A stretch of DNA of 12,895 bases from Candidatus Omnitrophota bacterium (GTDB lineage: Bacteria > Omnitrophota > Koll11 > Aquiviventales > Aquiviventaceae), in NCBI GenBank assembly GCA_023247285.1, contig JAHFGU010000010.1, positions 1-12,895 on the forward strand, in the 5' to 3' direction. The position numbers and the translations under genes were made by a program. Of this stretch, positions 159 to 12,191 are shown in pieces. Positions within the stretch are counted from its first letter, which is position 1. Each line of letters opens with the position of its first letter. The notes under the pieces were generated by a model. It had not been told where the DNA came from, did not search any database, and saw nothing but the letters and a program-made list of their open reading frames with translations.

Positions 159-329
159 GATGATCCTCTGCAGGACACTTTACAGCACCTGCTATAGCAT
201 CGACTATGATCTGCGTCATCTTCGATGCGCGCGCCGCATGATGGCGGTCATAGAACGCGGGGCGGCGAGGCTGTACACTTGCTTCGCACTTGAGGATGGG
301 GGTGTTGCGGAATCTCAGGGGGACCGCCC
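159..329. promoter_or_regulatory. Divergent intergenic region with candidate promoters and a 10-bp palindrome
   Basis: These 171 bases are the only real intergenic space in the left part of the window and must hold start signals for both the HTH gene (minus) and the signalling gene (plus). It is more AT-rich than the coding DNA. A perfect palindrome, TGCTATAGCA, sits at 190-199. On the minus strand ATGACG and TATAGC are separated by 17 bases (about 4/6 matches each to the sigma-70 -35 and -10 boxes), placing the -10 over the palindrome. On the plus strand TTTACA (179-184) and TATGAT (205-210) are better hexamers, but their 20-base spacing is too long. An XRE operator here is plausible but unproven. 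The plus gene has a ribosome site, AGGGGGA, just before 330. Confidence 0.35.
190..199. repeat. Perfect 10-bp palindrome TGCTATAGCA, possible operator
   Basis: A perfect inverted repeat lies in the divergent region, overlapping the best candidate -10 box of the HTH gene. XRE-family dimers often bind such short palindromes and autorepress. That role is inferred only from position and symmetry. A 10-bp palindrome can also arise by chance. Confidence 0.25.
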
Positions 330-2213
330 ATGCGAGCCACGGATGGGCTGCGACACGATCATGACGTCCTGCGGATCACCCTCACCCGCCTCGATGAGCG
401 GCTGGCGTGTCCGCCGGCTGCTCCGAGCGCGCTCCAGCCTCTGACCCACTCGATCGCCCGCCTGCTCCGCGACCATACGGAGCGGGAAGAGCGGCTCTTC
501 GGTAAGCTGCGAGAGGCCCTGCGGCGGCAGTCGGACGAGCGCGGCTTGCAGCTGCTCGCCGACCACGAGCATCACCGGAAGACAGCGGCAGCGCTCCTGG
601 AATTGCTCGGACGGTGCACGGCTGTGCCCGTCGATCACCTCTGCGCCTGCGCCGCGAATGCCATCGCCAGCTTACGGGAGCAGCTGGCCGAAGAAGAGGC
701 GCGGGTCTTTCCAGCTATCGATCAGTTCCTGCGAGAGGCCTCCGAACCGTCCCCCGCCGATCAGCTAGAGCCTGTGATCACCGGCGAGATGGTTGTCCAG
801 GACGTCGAACGCATCCATCCAAGGGCGCGGGAGGTCTTTCGCGCCTTCGGCGTCGATCCCGACGCCGACGGACCCTGTCGCCTGGACGGCCTCACGTGGC
901 GCCGCCGCGTGGACGTCGAAGCCCTCACGTTGGCGCTGCGCCAATCCCTCGGCGCCGACGGCCACACGGCGCCGATCCCGCAGCTCTTGTGGGATTCCTG
1001 TGATGGGTTGATGGTGATCGATGAGCGCCGCCGGATCCTGGCGATGAATCATGCCCTGGAGCGCTTGATGGGGCGGCGGGTCCAGGATGTGGCCGGGAGC
1101 GAGTGCAGCGCGTTACTGGCGTGCCAGGATGCGCGCGGGTGTCCCCTCGCGAACCATCCGGAGCGCTGCCCAGGGCTCAAAGCCGTGCGGCGTCGCAGGC
1201 CAGTGGCGGCTGCGGAATACACGATCGCGGCGGATCAAGGGCGGCGGCTGCCGGTCTCCACCAGCTACACGCCGTTGCGGTGCTCCTCGGCGGGCACGAC
1301 GTGGGCGCTGGTGGCCGTCCGCACCAACGCCGTGCAGAAACGGCGCGAGCGCCATCTCGCCGAGCAGGCGATGCGCGATCCGCTCACCACGCTGCCCAAT
1401 CGCGCCGGGTTCATGGAGGCGTGCGCGAGCGAATTCGCGCGGGCCAGCCGCCACCCTCGACCGCTGGCGGTGGCCATGGCAGACCTCGACGGGCTGAAAA
1501 CCTACAACGACACGTATGGCCACCTGGCCGGGGACGAGCTGCTCAAAACCGTAGGGGGCGCGCTGCGGATCGGCCGCCGGTCTGGCGAGGTGGTGGGGCG
1601 GTACGGGGGCGATGAATTCGCCGTCCTGCTGCCTGAGACCGCAGCCCCTGGGGCCATGGTGGCGGCTGAACGCCTGCGGCAAACCGTCACCGAGTTCTCT
1701 ATGGCTCACGCGAGCGCGGCAGGCGGCGCGCCACCATCGCTCACCCTGAGCGTGGGGATCGCGGTGTTCCCTGACGACGGGCCGACGCTGAGCGCCCTCT
1801 TACGGACAGCGGACCAGCGCCTATACGAGGCCAAGCATCGCGGCCGGAATCAAGTCGTCGGGCCTGCCAATTGCCTGGAGCGCCGCCGGCAGCGCCGGAT
1901 CAGGCTCGAGGCAGCCATCCGCCTGACCATCTCCGGCATCGAACAGCCGCCGTTCACCCACGAGGGCCGCCTCACCGACCTCAGCCTCACCGGAGCCTAC
2001 TGCACGACGGCACCGTGGAAACCCCTCATCCATCTCGGCGAGCTGGTGGCCTTCTCCCTGACGATTCCGCCCGCCCACAGCGCGGAATTTCCCTATGCCC
2101 AGCTCGCGGGGCACGGCCGCATCGTCCGGATGCATGGATTGCCAGACACCGCAGCCGGCGAGAAGCGGATCGGCCTTGCCTTGGACTTTGACGAGCTCCC
2201 CGCACCCCACTAG
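330..2213 (+). CDS. Hemerythrin / DUF1858-like / PAS / GGDEF / PilZ multidomain diguanylate cyclase
   Basis: A 627-residue cytosolic signalling protein without membrane segments. Residues 5-135 form a hemerythrin-like four-helix domain (H11, H49xxxE53, H79-H82 cluster), but the second HxxxE motif reads QxxxE (Q118, E122). Residues 149-207 resemble DUF1858/ScdA_N. Residues 215-335 are a PAS domain carrying a cysteine cluster (C259, C265, C271, C280). Residues 345-511 are a GGDEF domain with intact GGDEF at 426-430, so it should make c-di-GMP from two GTP. The product-inhibition site position reads RSGE (417-420) instead of RxxD. Residues 516-622 are a PilZ-like domain with an arginine cluster (518-525) and a D-x-S-x-x-G motif (D550, S552, G555), the c-di-GMP-binding signature. 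Hemerythrin-linked cyclases are known as oxygen-dependent enzymes (Vibrio Bhr-DGC), so O2, NO or redox input is likely. The ATG has an AGGGGGA ribosome site. The 3' end overlaps the stop of the convergent M50 gene. Confidence 0.9.
   Translation: MRATDGLRHDHDVLRITLTRLDERLACPPAAPSALQPLTHSIARLLRDHTEREERLFGKLREALRRQSDERGLQLLADHEHHRKTAAALLELLGRCTAVPVDHLCACAANAIASLREQLAEEEARVFPAIDQFLREASEPSPADQLEPVITGEMVVQDVERIHPRAREVFRAFGVDPDADGPCRLDGLTWRRRVDVEALTLALRQSLGADGHTAPIPQLLWDSCDGLMVIDERRRILAMNHALERLMGRRVQDVAGSECSALLACQDARGCPLANHPERCPGLKAVRRRRPVAAAEYTIAADQGRRLPVSTSYTPLRCSSAGTTWALVAVRTNAVQKRRERHLAEQAMRDPLTTLPNRAGFMEACASEFARASRHPRPLAVAMADLDGLKTYNDTYGHLAGDELLKTVGGALRIGRRSGEVVGRYGGDEFAVLLPETAAPGAMVAAERLRQTVTEFSMAHASAAGGAPPSLTLSVGIAVFPDDGPTLSALLRTADQRLYEAKHRGRNQVVGPANCLERRRQRRIRLEAAIRLTISGIEQPPFTHEGRLTDLSLTGAYCTTAPWKPLIHLGELVAFSLTIPPAHSAEFPYAQLAGHGRIVRMHGLPDTAAGEKRIGLALDFDELPAPH
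2210..2213. other. Convergent genes with interlocked TAG stop codons
   Basis: The four bases CTAG contain both stops: TAG at 2211-2213 for the plus-strand cyclase and TAG at 2212-2210 for the minus-strand protease. The genes therefore meet with no spacer and no room for a conventional intergenic terminator. Transcripts of one or both probably run antisense into the other unless termination occurs inside coding DNA. Confidence 0.85.
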
Positions 2214-3322
2214 GATCGTCCCGGCATCTCGCCACGCCCATTGGCTCGCTTCCGTAGGGCCGCCTGGATCATCAAGAGCTCGCCGACGTTCTCCATGGTT
2301 ACCATGCCGACCAGGCGCCCATGCTGGGCAACCGGCAGGGTATGGCAGTCGTGGCGATGGAGGCGGGCCAAGGCCTGCTCCAGCATTTCAGCAGGCTCAG
2401 CTGTCTCAAACTGCTGCTGCATGACCTCCCGGACACGCGTGCCCTCTCCGCGTTGGGCGAGCGCAGCCAATAACCTCCCCTGCGTGAGGACCCCGACGAC
2501 CTGCCCGGCTTCCACCACCGGAAAGTCTTGCTGGAAGCCTGCGAGCACATGCTCCACAGCCTGCGCCAGCGTATCGGTGGGTGCAAGCGTCTGAAACTCC
2601 GTGATCATCGCGCGGCTCACCGGGACATCGCCGAGCGCTGAGTGCATCTGTGCGGCCATCGCCTCTTCCGCTGCGCCGATCCAGACGAACAAGGCGATGA
2701 ACAGCAACACGGGGTTGACGAAGAGGCCTAGGAAGCCAAACCAGAGGGCGAGGCCCTGGCCGATGTTGGCAGCGATCTGGGTCGCCCGGGCGCGGTCCAT
2801 CCGCATCGCCAAGAACGCCCGCAGCACCCGGCCGCCGTCCATCGGAAAGGCCGGCAACAGGTTGAACACCGCCAGCGAGACGTTCGCCCAGAAGAGCTTG
2901 ATGAGCAGGGGGCCTCCCACCCATGAGGTCGGCGTCAGTCCGGCAAGGCCTGCGCCCGGCGCGAGCACGAGCCACAGCACGCCTGCCAACGCGATGTTCA
3001 CGGCCGGGCCGGCCAGCGCCACGAGCAATTCTTGCGTGGGGCGGCTCGGCATCCGCTCCATCCGGGACACGCCGCCGATGGGCAGCAAGATGATATCCCG
3101 CGTCGCAATGCCGAACCGTTTGGCGGCCAAGGCATGCGCCAGCTCGTGGATCACCACGATGCCAAAGAGCAGCAGGATGAACACCAGCCCGTCGATCGCA
3201 TCCACGATGCGGTGCCGGATGAGGAAACGGCTCATCGCCACCCAGGCCAAGAGGAAGAGAAATGTCCCATGCACATGGACGCTGATCCCGGCAATCTGTC
3301 CAAGGCGCCAGGCCCATCTCAT
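2210..3322 (-). CDS. M50 site-2-type membrane metalloprotease with C-terminal CBS pair
   Basis: A 370-residue integral membrane protease of the SpoIVFB/Rip3 group. The zinc site HELAH is at residues 59-63 inside a transmembrane segment (about 44-66), and the third-ligand motif is the LLPAFPMDGG region, with D162. Further hydrophobic segments lie near 12-32, 100-125, 140-160 and 188-215. Residues 236-290 and 298-353 form a cytosolic CBS pair, a module that usually binds adenine nucleotides and could gate proteolysis of a membrane-bound client. The frame stays open upstream to 3517, but that extension has no membrane-protein character and lies inside the glycosyltransferase gene. The ATG at 3322 overlaps that gene's TGA as ATGA, and no clear Shine-Dalgarno precedes it, which points to translational coupling. 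The client is unknown. Confidence 0.9.
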   Translation of the reverse strand: MRWAWRLGQIAGISVHVHGTFLFLLAWVAMSRFLIRHRIVDAIDGLVFILLLFGIVVIHELAHALAAKRFGIATRDIILLPIGGVSRMERMPSRPTQELLVALAGPAVNIALAGVLWLVLAPGAGLAGLTPTSWVGGPLLIKLFWANVSLAVFNLLPAFPMDGGRVLRAFLAMRMDRARATQIAANIGQGLALWFGFLGLFVNPVLLFIALFVWIGAAEEAMAAQMHSALGDVPVSRAMITEFQTLAPTDTLAQAVEHVLAGFQQDFPVVEAGQVVGVLTQGRLLAALAQRGEGTRVREVMQQQFETAEPAEMLEQALARLHRHDCHTLPVAQHGRLVGMVTMENVGELLMIQAALRKRANGRGEMPGRS

Positions 3323-4686
3323 CGCTGCGGCTCGCGATCCGCGGTGCCATCGAGCCGCATGAGGGCGGTCCTTGTCGCATGCGTGACGTTTCTCAAGAGC
3401 TGCCATTCCGTCTGCATGCGGCGCATCGCCTGCGCCCAGGCGCCGTCGCGGGGGGCTCGCGCCGCTCGCCCCCGTGCCAGCACGACGCGATACAGGGCCA
3501 GGGCGCGCTGGGCGCATCGGGAGAGCGAAAAGGCCTTCGCCGCTTCTTTGGCGGCCCGCCCTACGTCACGACGCGTGCGGGGGGCTGCCGTGGCAACCCA
3601 TCGGAGCGCCCTCACGTAGTCCTCGACGCGCGCCGATGAGGAGAGCAGCCGCCCGTTATACCCATCCTGAACCACTTCACGGACCCCTGAAGCGTCCAGC
3701 GCGATGACGGGCACCCCGGCGGCCATCGCTTCGATCAAGACGATGCCCTGCGTTTCCGTCTTGGACGTAAAGGCAAAGGCATCCATTGCGTGGTAGCAAT
3801 CGACCAACTGCTGCCGTTCCAGGATGCCGGCCATATGGAGCCGGCCGGCAACGCCTGCGCGGTGAAGGGTGCGGCGTATATCGTCTTCGCAGGATCCGCG
3901 CCCGGCGATGAAACAATGGGCCTGCGGGTGGGCCCGCAAGAACAGCGCGAGGGCCTGCGCGAGGAACCCAAGATTCTTCTCCGATGCCAGGCGCCCGATA
4001 TGACCCACGAGGAACGCACCGCGAGGAATGCCGAAGGCGCGCCGGGCGGCCGCGCCATCCCCGTGAGCAAACCGGCTGATCTCGACACCGGTCGGCACGA
4101 CGGCAATGGGGCGCCGGACTCCCCAGGCCCGCAGGAGCGCTGCGACACTGTCGCTGGGCGCAATGACCTGCTCACAGAGGTTCGCGTACGCAATCGACAG
4201 CCCCGCCATGAAGCGTTCCGCCATCGGCGAGTCCAGCGGCAGATAATGCGTGTACTCCTCGAACCGGACATGGTGGGTGTAGACCAGCGGCGCGTCGAAG
4301 GCGCGGGCGAACCGGAGCGCCGTGTTCCCCATGAGAAAGGGGTGGTGCGCGTGGATGAGATCCGGCTGCAACCGCTTCAACGTCCGGAGCACACCCAGCG
4401 GCATGGGCAGCGCCACGGAGAATGCCGAGCCACGGAACCGGCCGCGGATCGCCGGGATCCTGATGACATCAGGCTCATGCCTCGGCATCCCCGCATGCAC
4501 CGGGGCGACGATCACCACCCGGTGGCCGCGCCGGCGAAAGGCGGCCGTGAAGTCTTTGATCGACCGCTCGATGCCGCCGACGAACGGCGTATAGGTGTTG
4601 GTCATCATGAGGATCGTCAGCCGCCGAGGCATGCGGGCCTTGCTGTCCTGCCAGCCGTCACGGCGCCCACGCCCTCGAACCCTCAT
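3319..4686 (-). CDS. GT4-family glycosyltransferase (group 1)
   Basis: A 455-residue cytosolic or peripheral-membrane glycosyltransferase with the GT-B double-Rossmann fold. Residues 22-190 form the acceptor domain, beginning with 'TNTYTPFVGGIE', the usual loop of the PimB/DGDG-synthase-like GT4 group. Residues 195-400 form the nucleotide-sugar domain, with the retaining-enzyme E-x7-E motif at E311 and E319 followed by 'AMAAGVPVIALD'. The basic C-terminal tail (about 400-455) could lie along the membrane. The likely role is transfer of a sugar from UDP- or GDP-sugar to a lipid or polysaccharide; the exact substrate cannot be read. The ATG at 4686 overlaps the stop of the universal stress gene as ATGA and has GAGGAA five bases upstream. 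A second possible start is at 4632, with a weaker site. Confidence 0.88.
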   Translation of the reverse strand: MRVRGRGRRDGWQDSKARMPRRLTILMMTNTYTPFVGGIERSIKDFTAAFRRRGHRVVIVAPVHAGMPRHEPDVIRIPAIRGRFRGSAFSVALPMPLGVLRTLKRLQPDLIHAHHPFLMGNTALRFARAFDAPLVYTHHVRFEEYTHYLPLDSPMAERFMAGLSIAYANLCEQVIAPSDSVAALLRAWGVRRPIAVVPTGVEISRFAHGDGAAARRAFGIPRGAFLVGHIGRLASEKNLGFLAQALALFLRAHPQAHCFIAGRGSCEDDIRRTLHRAGVAGRLHMAGILERQQLVDCYHAMDAFAFTSKTETQGIVLIEAMAAGVPVIALDASGVREVVQDGYNGRLLSSSARVEDYVRALRWVATAAPRTRRDVGRAAKEAAKAFSLSRCAQRALALYRVVLARGRAARAPRDGAWAQAMRRMQTEWQLLRNVTHATRTALMRLDGTADREPQR

Positions 4687-5717
4687 CGTTGTTCCTCACG
4701 ATGGGTGACCTGACCCGCGGCACCACGGTCGAACTGCTCCACATCGTGGATCGAGTCTTGGCTCGCGCCGGTGCGCGGCACGGCCGGGCGCACGACCTCG
4801 ACCGGACAGGGGGCTCGCATGGCCACCGCCGTTGAGACGCTGCCAAGCAAGAACCGTTTGATCCCTCGCAAGCCCCGCGCCCCCACGAAGAGGCCGTCAG
4901 CATCCCAGCGCTTGGCTTCCTCGACCAGGACCGTTCTCGGATCGCCTCGCTTGACCACCGGGGCAACGAAGAGTCCGGCTGCACGGAGCCGGTGAACCGG
5001 ATCGTCGATCATCCGGCGCATCCACGAGGACGCCTGGCGGTTGCGTCCTTCGATCCATCGGAGCGTCGGCACGGCGGCCGACAAGGCCCCATCAATGGCC
5101 GTCACCATGCGCACCGTGCTCCTGGCAGGCCACACGCGCTCTGCGACGGCCGCAACCGCCGCCTCGGCATCCGGCGAGCCGTCGAACCCGATCATGAGAC
5201 ATGGCGGCGCATCGCGCTTAGCCAGCCGCCCGTGGACAACACGGACACCGCAGGGGGCGTCTCTGACGACCGCTTGCGAGACGCTGCCGGCGATGAACCG
5301 ACCGAGTGCCGAGCGTCCATGCGATCCCAGGACGATCAAATCGGCATGCCACTCTTCAGCCCGCTTGATAATACCCCACGCCGGTGCATCCGCAGCGGAT
5401 TCTGCCCGGACCTTCCAGCCGGGGCAGGCGGTTTGCAGCGCCTGGCACGCTTCCAAGGCAATCCCCCGCGCCTGTTTGAGCTCTTGGCGTTCGACTGTCT
5501 GGAGTGTTTGCAGTTGAGCCGCCGTCACTGGTGCGGCATCCAGGCCATCCACCCAGAACGAAGTCGATCGTGCCGCCGTCCAGATGTCGGCAACACAGAG
5601 CACGATGACCTCCATGCCGTCCGGCAATCCGGCACGGTTGCGCTTCAGATCTTCGAGCGCTTGCTTGGCTCCGTGTGATCCGTCGTAGGCCATCAAGACG
5701 CGCCGCGGCCTGGTCAT
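4683..5717 (-). CDS. Tandem-domain universal stress protein (UspA family)
   Basis: A 344-residue protein with two UspA folds. The first spans residues 4-163 and ends in the ATP-binding pattern G-x2-G-x9-G-S at 131-145. The second spans 172-310 with the same pattern at 279-293. Both are intact, so the protein should bind ATP like the two-domain USPs, for example mycobacterial Rv2623. Residues 311-344 form a polar tail. The family is linked to hypoxia, starvation and redox stress and acts in the cytosol. The ribosome site AAAGGAG is strong and overlaps the stop of the preceding CBS gene, leaving a 12-base spacing. The 3' end overlaps the glycosyltransferase start. Lone USPs average about 145 residues, so this is a fused pair. 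Confidence 0.93.
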   Translation of the reverse strand: MTRPRRVLMAYDGSHGAKQALEDLKRNRAGLPDGMEVIVLCVADIWTAARSTSFWVDGLDAAPVTAAQLQTLQTVERQELKQARGIALEACQALQTACPGWKVRAESAADAPAWGIIKRAEEWHADLIVLGSHGRSALGRFIAGSVSQAVVRDAPCGVRVVHGRLAKRDAPPCLMIGFDGSPDAEAAVAAVAERVWPARSTVRMVTAIDGALSAAVPTLRWIEGRNRQASSWMRRMIDDPVHRLRAAGLFVAPVVKRGDPRTVLVEEAKRWDADGLFVGARGLRGIKRFLLGSVSTAVAMRAPCPVEVVRPAVPRTGASQDSIHDVEQFDRGAAGQVTHREEQR

Positions 5718-5729
5718 CAGCTGCTCCTT

Positions 5730-6200
5730 TCAGTCCTTTCGTGCGGCCTGCGCGGTGGCGATCGCTTCGATGATATCGGCCATCTGCTGCTCCGTCCTGC
5801 GCGGCCCCGTGCCCGCCCATTCCTTTCGAGCCGCTCGGGCGATGTCCTTCAGGGAGAGAATCCCCACCAGTTTGCCGTCTTCCACCACCGGCAATCGGTG
5901 CACGGCATGCTGCTCCATGACCCGAGCCGCCTCTTCCAGCTCGGCCTCAGGGGCAACCGTCTTAGGCTCCTTCGTCATGCAGTCTGCGACCGTCACCCGG
6001 CTGGCCTGGACATCAGCCTGGGTCAGACACAGGGCGATATCGCGATCCGTGAGGACGCCGATCACCTGTTTGGTCGCCCGGCTGTCGATGACAGGGACGA
6101 ACCCGCACCGGCGCCGCCGCATGATCCGGCCCGCGAAGCCCAGCGTGTCCTGTGGCGTGCACGCGTCTGGATCAGCGGTCATCAGTTCGCGGACATTCAT
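5730..6200 (-). CDS. CBS-pair protein (copy 2 of the locus)
   Basis: A 156-residue soluble protein made of two CBS domains, about residues 7-62 and 74-125, forming one Bateman module. Each repeat carries the ribose-contacting G-h-x-T/S-x-x-D signature: 'GVLTDRD' at 48-54 and 'GILSLKD' at 113-119. Such modules bind AMP, ATP, NAD(P) or related ligands and can act as stand-alone sensors, as with mycobacterial Hrp1 (Rv2626c). It aligns without gaps over its first ~126 residues with the CBS protein at 8006-8464, at about 60% identity counted by eye. Cysteines C14, C32 and C74 are shared by both copies. The ribosome site GGAGGA lies 7-8 bases before the ATG. It follows the small basic ORF by 20 bases and precedes the tandem USP gene. 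Confidence 0.93.
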   Translation of the reverse strand: MNVRELMTADPDACTPQDTLGFAGRIMRRRRCGFVPVIDSRATKQVIGVLTDRDIALCLTQADVQASRVTVADCMTKEPKTVAPEAELEEAARVMEQHAVHRLPVVEDGKLVGILSLKDIARAARKEWAGTGPRRTEQQMADIIEAIATAQAARKD

Positions 6201-6220
6201 GATCGCGTCCTCCGTTCATC

Positions 6221-6442
6221 CTATTGGCCGTGCTTCATCGGCGCACCGGAGGCGTGTCGCCGCAGCCGCCGCTTCGAGATCCGGAGTGCCAGCGACTGCA
6301 TCTTCTGGCGCCACAGCGTGCCTTCCTGGTGCGCGCCGCCACCTGTTCGAGCGCGTGCTGACGGCGCGATCCGCTGCGTCGTCCATCTGGCGATCGGCGC
6401 TTTTTTGCTTTCCTCGATCTGTCCGGTCAGCTTGATGCCCAT
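6221..6442 (-). CDS. Small basic hypothetical protein, 73 residues
   Basis: A short frame fills the otherwise empty 258 bases between a hemerythrin gene and a CBS gene. It starts with ATG at 6442, preceded by AGGAG with an 8-base spacing, and ends in TAG 20 bases before the CBS start. Third codon positions are strongly GC-rich (close to 80% by eye), as expected for real coding here. The product is rich in Arg and Lys, especially near its C-terminus (RISKRRLRRH), with no membrane segment, no cysteines and no domain I recognise. It could bind nucleic acid or act as a small partner of the flanking hemerythrin or CBS proteins. It could also be non-coding. No function is assigned. Confidence 0.5.
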   Translation of the reverse strand: MGIKLTGQIEESKKAPIARWTTQRIAPSARARTGGGAHQEGTLWRQKMQSLALRISKRRLRRHASGAPMKHGQ

Positions 6443-6450
6443 GCGACCCG

Positions 6451-6455
6451 CTCCT
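6451..6455 (-). promoter_or_regulatory. Ribosome binding site AGGAG for the small basic ORF
   Basis: AGGAG on the minus strand lies 8 bases before the ATG at 6442. It is the main non-composition evidence that the short frame at 6221-6442 is translated. Confidence 0.45.
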
Positions 6456-6458
6456 GCA

Positions 6459-7136
6459 TCATCGACAGGCACACACCTCTTTCTCCTGCGCGCGCTCGCC
6501 GGTTGGAGACCCAGAGAGCGCTGATTGTCCAAGCCGGTCCAACAGCTCCTGGACATCCATCCCGCGCCGCCAGGCGACCTCATCAAGACAATCACACCCC
6601 TCATACGGGATGTTCACGAAGAGGTCCTCGAAGACGCCGCTGGTCGCCGGGTACTGATGCAGCACGCTGTTGACCGTCATGCATGCATGCAACGGCGCCC
6701 CTGACGGCTGCTGCGCCTGAGCGTTCGCAGGCTCCCGCGCGGCCAGCGCCTGCTCAAGGATCGGGAACAAGTCACGCTCCTCTTCAGTCATGTGGTGCCG
6801 AAGGCCTTGAATCACCTCGGTGAGCGCCGGCCGGATCCGATCGAGCGTATGGCCGTGCTCCTCCACGAAGAGGCGGTTGATCGTCCGCAGGTGCTCCGGC
6901 TCGTCACGGTGTTCCGCGGCCAGCTCGGCCAGCACGTGAGGCTTCATCGCCTTGCGGCAGGCCATGACCAGGTCCTCTTCGCGCTGCATGTGGTCCCGGA
7001 GCTGCCGCGAGAGCGTAAAGCACACCTCGCGGAGCACGTACCAGGTCTCCGGCCCCATCCGGAGACCCGCCTCCAACACCTCGAGCTTCGAGCGCAGGAT
7101 GGCATGATCGCGCTTCAGCCGCTCAATCGCGCTCAT
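6459..7136 (-). CDS. Hemerythrin-domain protein with C-terminal DUF1858/ScdA_N-like domain
   Basis: A 225-residue soluble protein. Residues 3-132 form a hemerythrin HHE domain with a full ligand set: H11, H49xxxE53, H76/H82 and H115xxxE119. It should therefore hold a di-iron centre able to react with O2, NO or peroxide. Residues 150-204 resemble the DUF1858/ScdA_N helical domain (pattern V-x2-V-x4-P...VF...GC-x-CLD...WRRGMDV-x2-LL), with a C-x-C pair at 181/183. RIC proteins (YtfE/ScdA), which repair iron-sulfur clusters after nitrosative stress, have these two domains in the opposite order. The tail ends in another C-x-C (222/224). I chose the ATG at 7136 because GAGGAGGC stands directly upstream; the frame is open to 7193 but that start has no comparable site. 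Confidence 0.88.
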   Translation of the reverse strand: MSAIERLKRDHAILRSKLEVLEAGLRMGPETWYVLREVCFTLSRQLRDHMQREEDLVMACRKAMKPHVLAELAAEHRDEPEHLRTINRLFVEEHGHTLDRIRPALTEVIQGLRHHMTEEERDLFPILEQALAAREPANAQAQQPSGAPLHACMTVNSVLHQYPATSGVFEDLFVNIPYEGCDCLDEVAWRRGMDVQELLDRLGQSALSGSPTGERAQEKEVCACR

Positions 7137-7141
7137 CGCAC

Positions 7142-7149
7142 GCCTCCTC
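7142..7149 (-). promoter_or_regulatory. Strong ribosome binding site GAGGAGGC deciding the start at 7136
   Basis: GAGGAGGC on the minus strand sits 5 bases before the ATG at 7136 and selects it over in-frame upstream codons at 7193 and 7172. The hemerythrin motif begins right after this start, as in its paralogues, whose first ligand is also H11. Confidence 0.75.
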
Positions 7150-7162
7150 TGCGCGATCGCAG

Positions 7163-7957
7163 TCAGCGCCATGATTCCACCGTGTCCGGACAAGGAGCGC
7201 AGAGAGGGCGTGCCCGCGACCCTGCGCTTCGTGAAGGCCTCCGCGGCTCGCTCGGCGCGCCCAGGTAGACGCTCCCGGGCGCGATGCGGGTGTCTTTGGG
7301 CACCACGGCGCCCGCGGCGATCACCGCCCCGTCGCCAACGTCGACCCCGGGCAGGATGATCGCATTGAGCCCCACGACAACGCGCTGGCCGATGCGGACC
7401 CGTTTGAGGATGAGCCGGCCCTCTTCAAAGAGGTGCCCCACAATCGTCGCATGACCTCCGATCACCGACCGGTCCCCGATCTCCAACAGCGAGGGATCAG
7501 CGCAGGACTTGGAGTTGATCTGCACCTCTCGGCCGATCTTCGCCCCCATGAGACGATAGAAGAGGGCCGCGAAGGGCGTCAGGAGGAGAACGCTGAGAAA
7601 CGTGATCGAGACAGGGGACTTCAGCGCGGTGCTGATCGCCCACTTGATGGCGTCCAGCGAGACGAGCGGATACGCGCCTTCTCGGAGATTGAGACGGAGC
7701 AGGCCGCGCAAGAGGCCGACCAGCAGGATCAGGATGACGCCGTACAGGAAATAGGACGCACTACCCGCCATGCACACCCAGAGGATCCGCGCCCACATGG
7801 GAGCAGCCGCTGTGTGCACCCAAAGCAGATGACACAGCCATGCGCCTGGAAAGATCGCCGCGCCGAGAAGCGGAATCTCCCCCGCGTACCCGATCAGCGC
7901 CAGTGCGGCGAGCCCGATGCTGAGCAGCCTTGTCTGACGAGCAACTGATCGTGGCAT
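7163..7957 (-). CDS. Membrane-anchored hexapeptide-repeat (left-handed beta-helix) acyltransferase
   Basis: A 264-residue protein. The N-terminal half is hydrophobic, with membrane segments near 11-46, 58-86 and 115-135. Residues 140-236 are a left-handed parallel beta-helix built of imperfect hexapeptide repeats (IGREVQ, IGDRSV, IGQRVV, VGLNAI, VGDGAV), closing with the 'GSVYLGAPS' type ending of the LacA/WbbJ/NodL acetyltransferase family. H169 or H175 may be the catalytic base. It probably transfers an acyl group to a membrane lipid, sugar or peptide at the cytoplasmic face; the architecture recalls the membrane-bound C-terminal part of NRPS-like proteins such as poly-lysine synthetases. 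AAGGTGGTG lies about 8-10 bases before the ATG. It sits between a CBS gene and a hemerythrin gene, and the last ~28 residues are an unrelated polar tail. Confidence 0.82.
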   Translation of the reverse strand: MPRSVARQTRLLSIGLAALALIGYAGEIPLLGAAIFPGAWLCHLLWVHTAAAPMWARILWVCMAGSASYFLYGVILILLVGLLRGLLRLNLREGAYPLVSLDAIKWAISTALKSPVSITFLSVLLLTPFAALFYRLMGAKIGREVQINSKSCADPSLLEIGDRSVIGGHATIVGHLFEEGRLILKRVRIGQRVVVGLNAIILPGVDVGDGAVIAAGAVVPKDTRIAPGSVYLGAPSEPRRPSRSAGSRARPLCAPCPDTVESWR

Positions 7958-8005
7958 GAGCGGTTCACCACCTTCACATTCAAGAGAGCGGGCGCGAATC
8001 CCCGG

Positions 8006-8464
8006 CTAGCTCCGGGCTGAGGCGATGGCCTCCACGATCTCTCCGAGTTTCTGCTCTGCCGTGGCCGATTCGGGATACGCCCAGCGTTTGTCGGCGGCCA
8101 CGGCGATGTCTTTCAGCGAAAGCACCCCGACGACCCGCCCGTTCTCGACCACGGGCAGCCGGTGAATGGCGAACTGCTCCATAAGCGCAGCCGCCTCGTT
8201 CAGGCTCGCGCTCGGGCCGATGCTCTTGACGTCCGCCGTCAGGCAGGCCTTCACCGGCACATCATCTGCGGTGTCATCCGCCTGGCCCAGATGCAGCGCG
8301 ATATCCCGATCCGTCACGACCCCAATCAGCCGCTTGGCGGCGTGGCTGTCCACAACCGGCACGAACCCGCAGTTGCGCCGCCGCATGATCGCGACCGCCG
8401 CAGCGCAGCTATCGGTTGCCAGGCAGGCCTCCGGCTCGGCCGTCATGAGCTCACGGATTTGCAT
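8006..8464 (-). CDS. CBS-pair protein (copy 1 of the locus)
   Basis: A 152-residue Bateman-module protein with CBS repeats at about 7-62 and 74-125. Nucleotide-contact motifs are 'GVVTDRD' (48-54) and 'GVLSLKD' (113-119). It is the paralogue of the protein at 5730-6200 (about 60% identity by eye, collinear, shared C14, C32 and C74). It also has C20, which its copy lacks. Its start codon lies inside the 3' end of the hemerythrin gene at 8443-8874, a 22-base overlap, with a GGGAGG ribosome site upstream within that gene. This suggests coupled synthesis of the hemerythrin and the CBS protein. The stop codon falls in the loop of a short GC hairpin (8001-8016). Confidence 0.93.
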   Translation of the reverse strand: MQIRELMTAEPEACLATDSCAAAVAIMRRRNCGFVPVVDSHAAKRLIGVVTDRDIALHLGQADDTADDVPVKACLTADVKSIGPSASLNEAAALMEQFAIHRLPVVENGRVVGVLSLKDIAVAADKRWAYPESATAEQKLGEIVEAIASARS

Positions 8465-8874
8465 AGCAGCCTCCCGCGTTCTTCCGCCGCATGCTCGACA
8501 ATCGGAAACACCTGGTGCTCTTCCTCCTCAAAACACTCCCGCAACTCATCGATCAGATGCCTGAGGTGGATGGTCAGGAGCCCCGTCGGCACGTGCCGCC
8601 ATGCGGCAAAGAGCATCCCGAGATCCCGGAGCACGACCTTGGGCTCGGCGTGATCAGGAAGCCGAGTCGCTCTCAGAACAGCCTGAATCCGGCCCTCATA
8701 GGGAGCCGTCGTCTGCTCCTCCTTGCGGAGGTGCGCCTCCAGCAACTCGACGATTGCCTGGTGGACGTCCTGGGCCACCTCTGCAGGCTGCGAGTCTGCG
8801 AGCACCTCCTGAAACACCGACAGCGTGTGGCGAATCAACCGGTGCTCAGCCTGCAACTCTTCCACGCTCGGCAT
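8443..8874 (-). CDS. Hemerythrin-domain protein with His-to-Cys change at a predicted iron ligand
   Basis: A 143-residue soluble protein that is almost entirely one hemerythrin HHE four-helix bundle. Visible ligands are H11 and H48xxxE52, with H94, H103 or H106 available for the middle positions. The fourth-helix motif, HxxxE in the paralogues, reads CxxxE here (C114, E118), followed by the conserved 'HQVFPIVE'. I checked the codon by reverse-complementing the sequence: it is TGT. The protein may hold an altered or mono-iron site, or use the thiol as a redox or NO sensor; this is inference. A strong TAGGAGGA ribosome site precedes the ATG and overlaps the stop of the small membrane protein gene. 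The 3' end overlaps the CBS gene by 22 bases. Confidence 0.88.
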   Translation of the reverse strand: MPSVEELQAEHRLIRHTLSVFQEVLADSQPAEVAQDVHQAIVELLEAHLRKEEQTTAPYEGRIQAVLRATRLPDHAEPKVVLRDLGMLFAAWRHVPTGLLTIHLRHLIDELRECFEEEEHQVFPIVEHAAEERGRLLCKSVSS

Positions 8875-8883
8875 CGCGTCCTC

Positions 8884-9231
8884 CTACTCGTCCGGCCGGT
8901 CGTTGCCCCACTCGGGGGCGCCGGGACGGGTGCCACCGGACGTCTGACCCGCATGCTGAGGCTCGTCCTTGCCGGCCGCCTTCGGGTGGAAATCGCCAAG
9001 CGCCATGGTGGGGGGGCGCGGCGGTGTCGGCTGCTGCTTCTCCAAGGCGATCCGCGCCAGCCATGCTGAGAGGACGCCGGCGATGGGACACACCACCCAG
9101 CTCACCCACATCGGGATCGCCACCGTTCCGATCGTGACGGGGATGTGCGCCAGCGTCCGCACCAGATGGACGCCGGCCGCCAGCGCAAACACACCAGACC
9201 ACCACATGCTCCACAATCGCCGCGTGTCCAT
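8884..9231 (-). CDS. Small membrane protein with two predicted helices and a Pro-rich tail
   Basis: A 115-residue protein I cannot assign to a family. Residues 9-30 and 36-62 are hydrophobic and should cross the membrane twice. Residues 63-115 are polar and rich in Pro, Gly and Lys (PTPPRPPT), probably an unstructured cytosolic tail. There is no signal-peptide cleavage pattern and no metal motif; single His residues occur at 22 and 29 in or next to the first helix. The frame is open to 9291, but I start at 9231 because GGAGGT lies 4 bases before that ATG; the ATG at 9249 has its GAGGAG too close. It sits between Hsp20 and a hemerythrin. It might be a membrane partner for either, or a client of the M50 protease; both ideas are speculation. 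Confidence 0.7.
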   Translation of the reverse strand: MDTRRLWSMWWSGVFALAAGVHLVRTLAHIPVTIGTVAIPMWVSWVVCPIAGVLSAWLARIALEKQQPTPPRPPTMALGDFHPKAAGKDEPQHAGQTSGGTRPGAPEWGNDRPDE

Positions 9232-9235
9232 CGCA

Positions 9236-9241
9236 ACCTCC
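9236..9241 (-). promoter_or_regulatory. Ribosome binding site GGAGGT deciding the start at 9231
   Basis: A perfect Shine-Dalgarno core on the minus strand, 4 bases from the ATG at 9231. It favours the 115-residue product over the longer frames that begin at 9249 or 9291. Confidence 0.65.
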
Positions 9242-9287
9242 GACCACCTCATTCTCCTCAGCGTGCCGGCTCCCGCCCCCACCCCCC

Positions 9288-9752
9288 TCACTTCACCTCC
9301 ACCTTGACCTGCTTGGCCTTCGCCGCGGCGAGCTTGGGCAGCGTGATCTCCAACACACCGCTCTTATAGGCCGCGTTCACCTTGGCCGCATCGACCCCGG
9401 CGGGGAGGGTAAAGCTGCGCAGGAAGCTGCCATAGCTGCGCTCCACCCGGTATGTCTTCGCATCCTTCGTCTCCGACTCGCGCTTGCGCTCCCCCCGAAT
9501 GGTCAGCACGCCCTCGGACACCTCGACCGCAATCTCCTCCTGCTTCATCCCCGGCAGATCAGCTTTGACGAGGAGGCGGTCCTTCTCCTCCGTGATATCC
9601 ACATCGGGGAACCACTGCTCGATGTTCTTCGGCGCCAGCCACGGCGCCGGGAACAGCGGCCGCCCGAACAAGCGGTTGATCTCTCGTGGGAACTCCCCGA
9701 ACTCGCGAAACGGCTCCAGCACATCCTCGCCCATCCATTTGATGAGGGCCAT
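9288..9752 (-). CDS. Hsp20 / alpha-crystallin family small heat shock protein
   Basis: A 154-residue ATP-independent holdase chaperone. The N-terminal arm (1-44) is hydrophobic and Phe-rich ('MGEDVLEPFREFGEF'). The alpha-crystallin domain spans about 45-141, with 'PDVDITEEKD', 'ADLPGMKQEEI', 'GVLTIRGER' and the closing A-x3-G-V-L motif ('AAYKSGVLEITLPK', 128-141) that is the family signature. The short Lys-rich tail (142-154) lacks an obvious I-x-I motif but ends V-K-V-E-V-K. The length is typical. GGAGGTGGGAG lies immediately before the ATG. It follows a hemerythrin gene by 20 bases and precedes the small membrane protein. Hsp20 proteins in other hypoxia-responsive loci (HspX/Acr) accompany USPs and CBS proteins. 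Confidence 0.96.
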   Translation of the reverse strand: MALIKWMGEDVLEPFREFGEFPREINRLFGRPLFPAPWLAPKNIEQWFPDVDITEEKDRLLVKADLPGMKQEEIAVEVSEGVLTIRGERKRESETKDAKTYRVERSYGSFLRSFTLPAGVDAAKVNAAYKSGVLEITLPKLAAAKAKQVKVEVK

Positions 9753-9772
9753 CTCCCACCTCCGCGCTGCGG

Positions 9773-10234
9773 TTACGCCAGACCCAACAGTTCGACCGAT
9801 GTCTCATCAACCGCCGTCGCGACCTCGCCCCCGCCGGCTCGATCGATGATGGGGAAGAACTGGCGCTCCTCCACCGCCATGTGCTCCCGCAGGTCCTTCA
9901 CGAGGTGCGAGGCGTGCGTGGCGATCTGCTCCTCGGAAGCCGGCTCGGGCGTGGTGAGGAGCTCGTGCAGGATGGCCAGCCGCGTGCGCTGATTCTCATG
10001 CGCATCGTGCAGATGCTGGAGCGGCTCACCCCAGGGGGTGCGTTGCCGGCCGGCGAGTGTCGCGAGGAGCTGCTCTTCCCGTTCGGTGTGCGAGCGCAGG
10101 CAGGTTGCGAGGGAATCCGTCAGGCGGGACAGCGTGCACGCGCACTCACGGCACGAAGGCAGATACCCCTCAAGCGTGGAGAGTTTCGCGCGCAGCACTT
10201 CATGATCGTATCGGAGCTCGTCACTGAACCCCAT
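9773..10234 (-). CDS. Stand-alone hemerythrin-domain protein next to the P1B ATPase
   Basis: A 153-residue soluble HHE protein with the complete ligand pattern H11, H49xxxE53, H76/H79 and H118xxxE122, so a di-iron centre is expected. It aligns in register with the N-terminal domain of the cyclase at 330-2213: H11, HTEREE at 49-54, H79 and residue 118 fall at identical positions, showing the two are close paralogues. A cysteine group, C28-x2-C31-x-C33 plus C45, lies in and after the loop between the first two helices and could bind metal or form disulfides. The ATG has CGGAG about 7 bases upstream and sits at the centre of a 12-bp palindrome. The gene follows the ATPase by 82 bases, the largest gap on this strand. 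P1B-5 ATPases of other bacteria carry this domain fused at their C-terminus. Confidence 0.92.
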   Translation of the reverse strand: MGFSDELRYDHEVLRAKLSTLEGYLPSCRECACTLSRLTDSLATCLRSHTEREEQLLATLAGRQRTPWGEPLQHLHDAHENQRTRLAILHELLTTPEPASEEQIATHASHLVKDLREHMAVEERQFFPIIDRAGGGEVATAVDETSVELLGLA

Positions 10235-10239
10235 GGGGT
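10228..10239. repeat. Perfect 12-bp palindrome ACCCCATGGGGT over a start codon
   Basis: The inverted repeat is centred on the ATG (10234-10232) of the hemerythrin gene. In RNA it could pair between molecules or form a very short stem hiding the start. DNA-binding or RNA roles are speculative. Confidence 0.3.
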
Positions 10240-10316
10240 GCTCCGGGTGTCAACGAACTCTCGACCCCCAACACCGCCACCATAGCGCGATGCCCGCCGG
10301 GATTCTATGACCTGGA
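10235..10316 (-). promoter_or_regulatory. 82-bp spacer before the hemerythrin gene, possible internal promoter region
   Basis: This is the longest gene-free stretch on the minus strand, so an internal promoter for the downstream stress genes is plausible. Only weak boxes are visible: TATGGT about 40-50 bases before the ATG, with a poor -35 (TAGAAT) 17 bases upstream. A TTGACA lies too near the ATG to serve. At the spacer's upstream end, overlapping the ATPase stop, ATGACCTGGATCAT (10307-10320) forms an interrupted inverted repeat (ATGA-6-TCAT) loosely like a Crp/Fnr half-site pair. No terminator hairpin with a U-tract is seen. Confidence 0.25.
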
Positions 10317-12191
10317 TCATGCGTGGTAGTCGGTCAGCGCTGTGGGCGGGCGCGCGGCGCGCAGCGCATTGACCACGGCGACCAAGTCGATGAGCTCCTG
10401 CGCCATGGCGCCCATCACCGGCGAGAGGTGCCCGGTGGCCGCAGCGGTCATGCCGGCGAGGCTGGCGACCATGCCTCCCACGGCGCTCTGGAGCGCCACG
10501 CGCCGCATGCGCGCGCTGATATGCAGGAACTCATCCAGCTTCTGCAGCGAGCTGTCCATGATCACCACGCCGGCCGCTTCACCCGCGACATCGCTGCGAT
10601 GGCCGATGGCCACCCCCACGGTCGCGGCCATGAGCGCCGGGGCGTCATTGATCCCGTCACCGACGACGAGCGTGTTGGCGCGCGCGGTCTCGCGCCGGAC
10701 GAGCGCCAGCTTGTCCTCAGGGCTCTGCTGCGCGAACACCTCGGCAATCCCCACCTGCTTCGCCAGAGACGCGACCTCGGCCTCGCGATCGCCGGACACC
10801 ATGAGAAGGCGCGAGAGCCGGTGCTTCGGGCCGAGGTGCGCGATGAACGGGCGCCCCTCAGCCCTCGGCTGATCGCGGAATCGCAACGCCGCTGCCGGAT
10901 GCCCATCGACAAGGACCACGCACTCGAGCCCCGACGGCGCCGCCGGCAGATCCGTCATGGCGGACGCCTGCTCGCGGCCGAGCTTCGCTCGGCCCGTGAC
11001 CTGCGCCATTCGGCCCAAGACGGCTCCGCGCAGCCCGTCGCCGGGCGCTTCGCTGACCTGCGAGGCTTCGTGGACCACGACCGATTCCTCGCGCGCCGCG
11101 GCGAGCACCGCCCTCGCCAGCGGATGCTTCGAATACTGCTCCAGGCTCGCGGCGAACCCCAGCGCGTCCTGGCGCGTGACCCCTGGGACGCAGAGGACCT
11201 CGGACAGGCGGGGTTCTCCGTAGGTCAGCGTTCCCGTCTTATCGAAAATCGCCGTCGTGCAGGTCGTGATCTGTTCCAGCACCACCGGCTTCTTCACGAT
11301 GATCGACCGTCTCGCGCACAGCGACACAGCGCCGATGATGGCCACCGGAATGCCGATCAGCAGCGGGCACGGCGTGGCGATGACCAACACGGCGAGAAAG
11401 CGGCTGGCCTGGCCGCTCCACGCCCAGGCGATCCCCGCCACCGCCAGCGCCAACGGCGCGTAGAGCCCGCCCAGCTGGTCCGCCAGCCGGCGGAGCCGCG
11501 GTTGGTGCTGTTCGGTCGCGCGCATGACCTCCATGATCTTCGCGTAGCGGGAGTCCTGGGCCCGCTTGGTGGCGCGGATCGTCAGCGCGGCCTCGCCGTT
11601 CACCGCGCCTGAGATCACGGCGGCACCCGGCGCCTTGGACATCTGGAACGGCTCGCCGGTTAAAAAGGACTCGTCCATCGCGCCGTGGCCCTCGAGCACC
11701 ACGCCGTCGACCGGACAGACCTCATGGGGAAAGACCACCAGCGTCTCGCCGACGGCAACGGCATCGAGGGCCAGGTCAACCATCTGCCCATCAACTTTGC
11801 GATGGGCGACGGAAGGCACGCGGCGGGCGAGCGCGCGGAGCACCGAGGCGGCGTTGCGCACGGCGTAGTCCTCGAGCAGGGTGCCGCTCGCCAGCATCAG
11901 GACGATGAAGGCCCCGGCCAGATATTCCTGCAGGAGCACCGCGGTGATGATCGACAGCGCGGCAATGAGATCCGCGCCCCATTCGCGGCGCAGGAGCTGG
12001 CGCAGGATGTCCCAGACCAGCGGCAGGCCGCCGACGACCAGCGCCGCCAGGAGCGGCCATTCCTGGACCGACGGGCGCGCCTGGACGACCACACGCAGGA
12101 ATAGGTAGACCAGCAGCGCGGCCAGCGAACCAACGAAAATAACGAGATGCCGGCGGCTGGATGCGGTGGCTGAGGAGCCTTCGACGTTCAT
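10317..12191 (-). CDS. P1B-type heavy-metal translocating ATPase with TPCP motif (P1B-5-like)
   Basis: A 624-residue inner-membrane pump with all P-type signatures: TGE (178-180) in the actuator domain, phosphorylated D317 in DKTGT (317-321), the P1B HP dipeptide (356-357) and GDGIND (511-516). The ion-path motif in the fourth-helix region is TPCP (273-276), not CPC or SPC. A late helix carries 'MAQELIDLVAV..NALR', with a Q-E-x-x-D arrangement (598-602). TPC plus QExxD are, from memory of the literature, marks of the P1B-5 group linked to Ni and Fe export. There is no N-terminal HMA domain, and the protein stops right after the last helix, without the C-terminal hemerythrin domain P1B-5 pumps usually have; a separate hemerythrin gene follows. 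The ATG at 12191 has only a weak G-rich site. Metal specificity is inferred. Confidence 0.92.
   Translation of the reverse strand: MNVEGSSATASSRRHLVIFVGSLAALLVYLFLRVVVQARPSVQEWPLLAALVVGGLPLVWDILRQLLRREWGADLIAALSIITAVLLQEYLAGAFIVLMLASGTLLEDYAVRNAASVLRALARRVPSVAHRKVDGQMVDLALDAVAVGETLVVFPHEVCPVDGVVLEGHGAMDESFLTGEPFQMSKAPGAAVISGAVNGEAALTIRATKRAQDSRYAKIMEVMRATEQHQPRLRRLADQLGGLYAPLALAVAGIAWAWSGQASRFLAVLVIATPCPLLIGIPVAIIGAVSLCARRSIIVKKPVVLEQITTCTTAIFDKTGTLTYGEPRLSEVLCVPGVTRQDALGFAASLEQYSKHPLARAVLAAAREESVVVHEASQVSEAPGDGLRGAVLGRMAQVTGRAKLGREQASAMTDLPAAPSGLECVVLVDGHPAAALRFRDQPRAEGRPFIAHLGPKHRLSRLLMVSGDREAEVASLAKQVGIAEVFAQQSPEDKLALVRRETARANTLVVGDGINDAPALMAATVGVAIGHRSDVAGEAAGVVIMDSSLQKLDEFLHISARMRRVALQSAVGGMVASLAGMTAAATGHLSPVMGAMAQELIDLVAVVNALRAARPPTALTDYHA

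What the first reader, a model, noticed from the sequence alone, without database searches (positions are those of the whole stretch)
2210..12191. Dormancy-type (DosR-like) gene set built around hemerythrins
On one strand lie Hsp20, a tandem USP, two CBS-pair proteins, an M50 protease with a CBS pair, and a P-type ATPase. The mycobacterial hypoxia/NO DosR regulon has matching types: HspX, Rv2623 (tandem USP), Rv2625c (M50-CBS), Rv2626c/Hrp1 (CBS pair) and CtpF. Here the set is mixed with three hemerythrins and no DosR-type regulator is visible. This may be a hypoxia or nitrosative-stress survival locus in an unrelated lineage, sensed through di-iron proteins.
Basis: partly seen in the sequence, partly recalled or inferred. 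Interest (0 to 1): 0.78.

Follow-up and report, generated by a model that had tools for sequence, protein, structure and literature searches.

The report
Hemerythrin stress operon under FNR-like switch
This stretch of DNA from an uncultured bacterium, probably of the phylum Omnitrophota, carries a stress operon of iron-binding hemerythrins, a small heat-shock protein and energy-sensing CBS proteins whose promoters share a control sequence of the FNR/CRP type, so it looks like that lineage's own low-oxygen or nitrogen-oxide response rather than a copy of the tuberculosis dormancy regulon.

Summary
The genes are as described, with two corrections: a fourth hemerythrin protein (330-2213+, Hr-PAS-GGDEF-PilZ), and a heavy-metal P1B ATPase, not a CtpF type. 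DosR kinship is not supported: no DosR box, and Rv2623 and Rv2626c are not the closest PDB relatives. The missing regulator can be inferred. ATGATnnnnGTCAT occurs three times in the window, each before a gene start (0.01 expected). Around Omnitrophota hemerythrin orthologs, CTATGAYnnnnRTCATAG gives 16 sites against a permutation mean of 0.8, first of 1260. Of 22 sites, 19 have a TAnnnT hexamer 29-30 bp from the centre; no other offset pair tested exceeds 2: a class-II CRP/FNR promoter. Crp/Fnr genes lie beside the hemerythrin ortholog in 6 of 7 genomes. Genome G280 keeps site-Hr-Hsp20-Hr-CBS-LbH-basic protein-CBS. USP and M50-CBS are not conserved with this core, and the ATPase is unlinked. 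Genome-wide motif counts alone do not discriminate. The hypoxia/NO idea is partly supported; signal and binding are untested.

The parts
1..158 (-). XRE-type helix-turn-helix protein, cut by the window edge; its start is about 54 bp from the centre of site 206-219
   Evidence: Pfam HTH_3 26.7 bits, cut-off 23; 64-70% identical to XRE genes in L128, L179 and L189, each just after a site (L179 and L189 were fetched because of their sites)
206..219 (-). FNR/CRP-type site 1 (ATGATCTGCGTCAT on +), with a TAAAGT -10 toward the XRE gene at offset 30
238..251 (+). FNR/CRP-type site 2 (ATGATGGCGGTCAT), with a TACACT -10 toward the Hr-GGDEF gene at offset 29
330..2213 (+). hemerythrin - PAS - GGDEF - PilZ protein; GGDEF motif and PilZ DLSLTGA motif intact; last hemerythrin-domain His is Gln
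   Evidence: Pfam, motif scan, alignment; 41% relative beside a Crp gene in L133
2210..3322 (-). M50 site-2 protease with a CBS pair; start overlaps the GT4 stop
   Evidence: Pfam; 7973 relatives among 8000 candidates scored; start read
3319..4686 (-). GT4 glycosyltransferase
   Evidence: Pfam
4683..5717 (-). tandem universal stress protein
   Evidence: Pfam Usp, two stretches; relatives
5730..6200 (-). CBS-pair protein CBS1
   Evidence: Pfam; 57-65% relatives in L207, L208, L211
6221..6442 (-). 73-aa basic protein with no Pfam match, directly before CBS1
   Evidence: 87% over 62 aa in G280 (before CBS1), 68% over 34 aa in G219 (before CBS1), 81% over 31 aa in G267 (between Hr_DUF and LbH); no Pfam or PADLOC match
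6459..7136 (-). hemerythrin domain plus C-terminal DUF542-like part (my reading of the sequence) (Hr_DUF)
   Evidence: Pfam hemerythrin 49 bits; 7 of 285 Omnitrophota genomes have a match at E<=1e-8; ligands
7163..7957 (-). left-handed beta-helix (hexapeptide) membrane protein LbH
   Evidence: Pfam Hexapep; next to Hr_DUF in L131, 62%; 80% over 105 aa in G280
8006..8464 (-). CBS-pair protein CBS2
   Evidence: Pfam; 78% in G280, 75% in G267
8443..8874 (-). hemerythrin Hr2; last ligand His not conserved
   Evidence: Pfam 37 bits
8884..9291 (-). small membrane protein
   Evidence: no Pfam match above cut-off; 56% relative over 71 aa beside Hr genes in L133
9288..9752 (-). Hsp20 small heat-shock protein
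   Evidence: Pfam; 63-75% in G219, G267, G280
9773..10234 (-). hemerythrin Hr3, first gene of the operon
   Evidence: Pfam 52 bits; YtfE is the best PDB match but weak, E=0.023
10307..10320 (-). FNR/CRP-type site 3 (ATGATCCAGGTCAT on -), centre 80 bp before the Hr3 start, with a TATGGT -10 at offset 29
   Evidence: similar distance (84 bp) in G280
10317..12191 (-). P1B heavy-metal ATPase with TPCP motif, no fused hemerythrin; upstream of, and not fronted by, the site
   Evidence: NCBIfam TIGR01525; alignment; comparison with Hr-fused relatives
12210..12893 (-). ICMT/PEMT-type methyltransferase, open at the window end
   Evidence: Pfam

Best explanation
The locus is a stress-survival operon (Hr3-Hsp20-membrane protein-Hr2-CBS2-LbH-Hr_DUF-basic protein-CBS1-USP-GT4-M50), with a divergent XRE/Hr-diguanylate cyclase pair. 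All three promoters are switched on by a CRP/FNR-family activator that binds CTATGAYnnnnRTCATAG centred about 41 bp upstream of transcription start (class II). In relatives this activator is encoded next to the hemerythrin gene. Context suggests it responds to low oxygen or nitrogen oxides. The YtfE-like hemerythrins would then handle NO or iron for cluster repair, Hsp20 and CBS/USP proteins would protect proteins and read ATP/AMP, and the Hr-GGDEF-PilZ protein would tie the response to c-di-GMP. Shown: genes, sites, -10 spacing, conservation of the core and linkage to Crp/Fnr genes in relatives. Inferred: which Crp/Fnr paralogue binds, the signal, the biochemical roles, and the phylum of the source.
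For: Motif 3 times against 0.01 expected in the window. Rank 1 of 1260 permutations in the window (3 against a mean of 0.04) and in seven loci fetched by Hr_DUF homology (16 against 0.80); no excess in eight ATPase-anchored loci (1 against 1.14). 19 of 22 sites have TAnnnT at offset 29 or 30; 71 other adjacent offset pairs average 0.31, maximum 2. 18 of 22 sites lie within 125 bp of a gene start by my simple caller. At least one Crp/Fnr gene lies within about 1.1 kb of the best Hr_DUF match in 6 of 7 genomes; E and R of the recognition helix are invariant in 6 of 6 aligned regulators. Core synteny with site in G280; partial in G267 and G219. Neighbours: Sec-type NosZ (830 bits, cut-off 625) and NirK (312, cut-off 296); multihaem cytochromes and FeoB; cytochrome oxidase subunits I and II, just under NCBIfam cut-offs.
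Against: No genome is held for the source, so its own Crp/Fnr gene is unseen. Whole-genome counts of the 16-bp pattern with one mismatch do not separate genomes well: 65 against 21 (reversed pattern) in nine genomes, but also 295 against 158 in twenty genomes that one search lists without Hr_DUF. The consensus was widened using some of the loci later tested (its core came from the window alone). L207 was first reached through a site (L192) and only then also by CBS2 homology; without it the spacing count is 18 of 21. L127 and L128 carry the same locus. G280's cluster lacks the small membrane protein, and its Hr_DUF lies on another contig. USP: 0 of 10 relatives. M50-CBS: 2 of 12, partial. No expression or binding data exist, and the regulators lack FNR's N-terminal cysteines, so the signal is open.
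Confidence: 0.77

Rival explanations
1. A true DosR-type regulon, homologous to the mycobacterial one, with a DosR regulator elsewhere in the genome.
For: The mix Hsp20, CBS pair, tandem USP, M50-CBS resembles DosR-regulon members (recalled; Rv2623 as hypoxia-induced also in the listed abstract of PMC2682197).
Against: GGGACnnnnnGTCCC with up to 2 mismatches is not enriched (6 against 11.6 expected). The Rv2623 chains rank 5th and 6th of 10 and Rv2626c joint 14th of 68. The promoters carry CRP/FNR-type architecture instead. The ATPase is P1B.
Confidence: 0.04
2. Convergent assembly of common stress genes driven mainly by energy starvation or general stress, with the CRP/FNR protein responding to a nucleotide or metabolite rather than to O2 or NO.
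For: PEPCK, a class V aminotransferase and a gene that I read as MobA-like also lie behind sites. The regulator scores far below the cut-offs of the Fnr, FixK and Crp models, with similar bits for each. CBS and USP domains commonly bind adenylates (passages of PMC11841059).
Against: Repeated linkage to hemerythrins, NosZ, NirK, FeoB and respiratory cytochromes.
Confidence: 0.22
3. The hemerythrin gene beside the ATPase is a split version of the P1B-5 ATPases with fused C-terminal hemerythrin, so the locus is mainly about iron or nickel export.
For: Same TPCP motif and similar C-terminal helix as S. meliloti, Rhizobium and Cupriavidus ATPases that carry a C-terminal hemerythrin domain. L109 and L110 also hold USP genes, and L110 a CBS gene and a Crp/Fnr gene.
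Against: 15 ATPase relatives in genomes (7, 8) have no hemerythrin gene matching the window's in the flanks held; one (L099) has a CBS-pair gene beside it, 26% identical. The ATPase gene ends at the site and is not fronted by it. A closer relative on a Legionella plasmid (53%) has no fused hemerythrin domain.
Confidence: 0.08
4. The palindromes are chance or low-complexity features.
For: Similar patterns occur genome-wide in relatives without Hr_DUF.
Against: Permutation test and the sharp -10 spacing peak at 29 bp, which was not used to define the motif.
Confidence: 0.02

Closest known systems
Mycobacterial DosR regulon
   Different: No DosR box; CRP/FNR-type class-II promoters; P1B ATPase; hemerythrins central
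Myxococcus xanthus NmpRSTU oxygen-utilisation regulon (PMC11841059, passages read)
   Same: CBS-domain protein, USP, P-type ATPase and hemerythrin genes in one low-oxygen regulon
   Different: There controlled by an NtrC-like response regulator; here by CRP/FNR-type sites; the term M50 does not occur in that text
Burkholderia cenocepacia lxa locus (PMC6127331, passages read)
   Same: Six USPs and an alpha-crystallin-type heat-shock protein in a low-oxygen locus, compared by its authors with DosR, with a CRP/FixK-type candidate regulator
   Different: The passages read do not mention hemerythrins (the term was not searched); different lineage
HcpR, DNR and NnrR nitrogen-oxide regulons of the FNR family (PMC1274295, passages read)
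   Same: FNR-type regulators of nir/nos genes; HcpR regulons often contain hemerythrin-like genes; nnnn-spaced palindromes
   Different: Motifs quoted there are TTGACnnnnGTCAA, TTGATnnnnATCAA, TTGcgnnnncgCAA, GTAACnnnnGTTAC and a CRP-like one; here A stands at the first base of the half site (ATGAY)
Rhizobial P1B-5 ATPase clusters (loci L109, L110; P1B-5 described in PMC9388753 passages)
   Same: TPCP ATPase with USP genes (both loci) and with CBS and Crp/Fnr genes (L110); TTGAYnnnnRTCAA boxes present, chance not tested
   Different: Hemerythrin fused to the ATPase there; separate genes here

Membership tests
DosR regulon | DosR-type response regulator and GGGACnnnnnGTCCC-centred box (box recalled) | tested here: not met
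   6 matches against 11.6 expected; no response regulator among the 15 ORFs scanned
DosR regulon | Members orthologous to Rv2623, Rv2626c and CtpF | tested here: not met
   by rank of PDB matches and by ATPase class only; Rv2625c and HspX were not compared directly
CRP/FNR class-II regulon | Palindrome with TGA...TCA core centred near -41.5 from the start, -10 hexamer about 29 bp on (geometry recalled) | tested here: met
   start sites themselves are not mapped
CRP/FNR class-II regulon | A Crp/Fnr-family regulator that binds the site | tested here: inconclusive
   Genes adjacent in 6 of 7 relatives; none in the window; binding untested
FNR proper (oxygen-sensing iron-sulfur type) | N-terminal cysteine cluster (recalled) | tested here: not met
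   Six aligned regulators have no N-terminal cluster; six other cysteines are invariant
HcpR/DNR/NnrR | Published DNA motifs | tested here: not met
   Motif differs at the first base of the half site
Canonical O2-binding hemerythrin | H-HxxxE-HxxxH-HxxxxD ligands (PMC9388753, passages) | tested here: not met
   Last motif is HxxxE or lacks the His in all four window domains
RIC/YtfE-type di-iron protein | H-HxxxE-H-HxxxE ligands (PMC9268430, passages) | tested here: met
   Hr3 and Hr_DUF only; the equivalog score is far under its cut-off (34.7 against 204.7)
RIC/YtfE-type di-iron protein | N-terminal ScdA_N domain | tested here: not met
   The DUF542-like part of Hr_DUF is C-terminal, read from sequence; no Pfam match for it
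P1B-5 ATPase | TPCP motif (link of motif to subgroup recalled) | tested here: met
P1B-5 ATPase | Fused C-terminal hemerythrin (present in some members) | tested here: not met
   compare

The most novel reading that the evidence does not exclude
Omnitrophota have their own master switch for low oxygen or nitrogen oxides: a CRP/FNR subfamily with six invariant cysteines in the beta-roll and dimer-helix regions (no FNR-type N-terminal cluster) that reads an ATGAYnnnnRTCAT palindrome and turns on a hemerythrin/Hsp20/CBS operon, nosZ and a conserved unknown 73-aa basic protein, making a dormancy-like state that arose independently of DosR.
Probability: 0.35. Interest if true: 0.78.

Novelty: new variant of a known kind. 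Interest (0 to 1): 0.62.

Why it matters
It gives a testable regulon, with a named motif, a precise promoter geometry and candidate regulators, for a phylum with almost no cultured members (recalled). It also shows that a DosR-like toolkit (Hsp20, CBS, USP) can be recruited under a different class of switch. The six-cysteine regulator and the 73-aa basic protein are concrete new targets. Linkage to a Sec-type nosZ bears on N2O reduction by such bacteria.

Tried and rejected
Nitrospirota gave 0 of 198 (no positive control). Viral contigs gave no relative for USP or the Hr-GGDEF protein. USP anchoring gave 40% and 35% relatives in G200 and G339 only (1 of 147 genomes, 2 of 16). A DosR box was searched and rejected. 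A kinship of CBS1 to archaeal ribosome hibernation factors was considered because CBS proteins recorded as chains 9znf top the PDB list (PMC13324472 passages, which do not name that entry); CBS similarity is too generic, and that paper's family is a four-CBS module fused to an HPF domain, so it was dropped. No RNA family and no tRNA were found. Genome-wide motif counts were tried as a test and were not discriminating.

Left out of counts: loci L134-L137 (secondary hemerythrin matches) were not in the tests, although L136 holds sites. L127 was dropped as a duplicate of L128 but was counted. Loci L179-L198 were fetched because of sites and were not used in those tests; L207, which overlaps L192, was used because CBS2 homology also finds it. 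The 20 promoters were hand-picked; one search used all 22 sites of its 13 sequences.


Full report
What is there. On the + strand a 627-aa Hr-PAS-GGDEF-PilZ protein adds a fourth hemerythrin domain. A partial XRE gene sits at the left edge. What looked like a 258-bp gap before CBS1 encodes a 73-aa basic protein that is 87% identical over 62 aa in another genome.

The DosR comparison. A DosR-type box is not enriched. In PDB sequence searches the two Rv2623 chains (2jax, named TB31.7, and 3cis, whose identity is recalled) are 6th and 5th of 10 matches for the USP, and Rv2626c is joint 14th of 68 for CBS1. The ATPase scores as heavy-metal P1B, whereas CtpF is a P2 type (recalled). The resemblance is of types, not of descent.

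A shared promoter motif. Reading the upstream regions showed ATGATnnnnGTCAT; a search finds it three times, at 206-219, 238-251 and 10307-10320, and shuffled sequence gives 0.01. The pattern was noticed before it was counted, so that figure alone is post hoc. Other loci were therefore used. Hr_DUF was searched in 285 Omnitrophota genomes: 7 have a match at E<=1e-8, the best at 59% identity. The seven loci fetched around the best match of each (L127-L133) hold 16 sites with at least 12 of 14 matches to CTATGAYnnnnRTCATAG. Over all 1260 permutations of the half site the mean is 0.80, and only the true order reaches 16. The window gives 3 against 0.04, six CBS2-bearing loci give 7 against 0.45 (3 of 1260 permutations reach that), and eight ATPase-anchored control loci give 1 against 1.14. 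L127 and L128 carry the same locus, so the 16 are about 12 independent sites. At the stricter 13 of 14 the CBS2 set has only 1 site and the window none.

Promoter geometry. For all 22 sites in the window and 12 loci, the distance from palindrome centre to any TAnnnT was tabulated on both sides. 18 of 22 sites have it at offset 29 and 19 of 22 at 29 or 30; 71 other adjacent pairs average 0.31 with a maximum of 2. The three misses are L129 19141, L132 8747 and L209 9245. One locus, L207, had first been reached through a site (L192) before CBS2 homology also found it; without it the count is 18 of 21. This is the spacing of a class-II CRP/FNR promoter (site at -41.5; recalled). All three window sites obey it, pointing at the XRE gene, the Hr-GGDEF gene and Hr3. 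18 of 22 sites are within 125 bp of a start by my simple gene caller.

The regulator. PF13545 (Crp-type HTH) rings in 9 of 9 genomes asked, with 16 matches over cut-off; it also rings in all 14 control genomes, so the family is common. At least one match lies within about 1.1 kb of Hr_DUF in six of the seven Hr_DUF genomes; others lie elsewhere. In the seventh, G267, Hr_DUF is on another contig, but two Crp genes sit on a contig with another hemerythrin and FeoB. Six regulators were aligned (the other five are 66-75% identical to the first): they keep E and R of the recognition helix, lack N-terminal cysteines and share six other invariant cysteines. PMC1274295 (passages) describes how CRP positions 180 and 181 correlate with motif bases 3 and 6; here position 180 varies (V, Q, H), E181 is kept, and base 3 is A. 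That correspondence is my reading.

Regulated neighbours. In G123: site-Hr_DUF-Crp-site-XRE-nosZ-nosD-ABC pair (Pfam; the same order by ORFs in G280); the NosZ scores 830 against a cut-off of 625 for the Sec-dependent type, called clade II from memory. In G219: site-Hr_DUF, with NirK (312, cut-off 296) and a CBS pair downstream. In G289: Crp-site-Hr_DUF-HemA, with cytochrome b and multihaem cytochromes further on; G156 has a similar order. In G275: Hr and Hr_DUF behind an 18/18 palindrome, with a relative of the small membrane protein, a Crp gene and a Hr-PAS-GGDEF protein beside it. In G075: Hr-CBS-cytochrome oxidase subunits (oxidase scores just under cut-off). PEPCK and other metabolic genes also follow sites.

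Synteny. CBS2 has matches at E<=1e-28 in 6 of 285 genomes. G280 keeps site-Hr3'(36%)-Hsp20(75%)-Hr2'(40%)-CBS2(78%)-LbH(80% over 105 aa)-basic protein(87%)-CBS1(65%), with the site 84 bp before Hr3' against 80 in the window; the small membrane protein is missing there and its Hr_DUF is on another contig, the one with the Crp genes and nosZ. G267 keeps site-Hsp20-CBS2 and, 4 kb on, CBS1. G219 has site-PEPCK-Hsp20-(other)-basic protein-CBS1. USP (0 of 10) and M50-CBS (2 of 12, partial) are not part of the conserved core, and ATPase relatives are unlinked, except that one (L099) has a 26% CBS-pair gene beside it. One search warns that an empty answer without a positive control shows little; the same query did match G200 and G339.

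Results against. Whole-genome pattern counts with one mismatch exceed the reversed pattern also in twenty genomes listed without Hr_DUF (295 against 158), compared with 65 and 21 in nine genomes. So the pattern alone does not mark the regulon; position and -10 spacing do. The source genome is not held.

The hemerythrins. None of the four has the canonical O2-carrier ligand set. Hr3 and Hr_DUF have the YtfE-type H-HxxxE-H-HxxxE set; Hr2 and the GGDEF protein lack the last His (ligand sets from passages of PMC9388753 and PMC9268430). Two of the eight Hr_DUF-type proteins aligned also lose ligands. This favours NO/iron chemistry over O2 storage, as inference.

The ATPase. S. meliloti, Rhizobium and Cupriavidus relatives with the same TPCP motif carry a C-terminal hemerythrin domain; L109 and L110 hold USP genes, and L110 also CBS and Crp/Fnr genes. 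The window's version has no such domain, and its gene ends at site 3, so it is probably not in the regulon through that site.

Known parallels. The M. xanthus NmpR regulon (PMC11841059, passages) and the B. cenocepacia lxa locus (PMC6127331, passages) are the closest sets that I found. Full-text searches for Omnitrophota with hemerythrin found no paper, nor did hemerythrin with universal stress protein, CBS domain and Hsp20; subscription papers and preprints are mostly not covered. I conclude that this is a new variant of a known kind.

Noticed in passing
window 6221-6442 (-); L207 16539-16724; L211 9543-9644; L131 8773-8865: A 73-aa basic protein with a strongly conserved C-terminus and no Pfam match sits beside CBS1 or LbH in three other genomes.
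   Followed up: partly
L128:6554-7201, L129, L130, L132, L133, L136: Crp/Fnr regulators with six invariant cysteines (positions 70, 79, 80, 125, 128, 139) and no FNR-type N-terminal cluster.
   Followed up: partly
L128:8769-14616: An Omnitrophota genome has a Sec-type nosZ-nosD-ABC operon behind an XRE gene and an FNR-type site.
   Followed up: partly
L128:8769, L179:11724, L189:15383, window 158: XRE genes start 48-54 bp after the palindrome centre in all four places; L179 and L189 were fetched because of their sites.
   Followed up: partly
L106:18977, gene 17986-18927 (-): The 40% USP relative in G200 has TGATGAGCGTCA, the core of the motif, about 50 bp before its start; not tested against chance.
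   Followed up: no
L211:10141-10347, L208:7274-7477: DUF2934 small proteins lie next to the CBS-pair genes in two relatives.
   Followed up: no
L207 16033-17110: LbH in G280 matches only residues 134-238 of the window protein; gene decay or an assembly break is possible.
   Followed up: no
L109, L110: Rhizobial plasmids carry hemerythrin-fused P1B ATPases near USP genes, with nos genes (L109) or CBS, Crp/Fnr and nirK genes (L110).
   Followed up: partly
window 330-2213: The diguanylate cyclase also carries a PilZ domain with an intact motif, so it could bind its own product.
   Followed up: no
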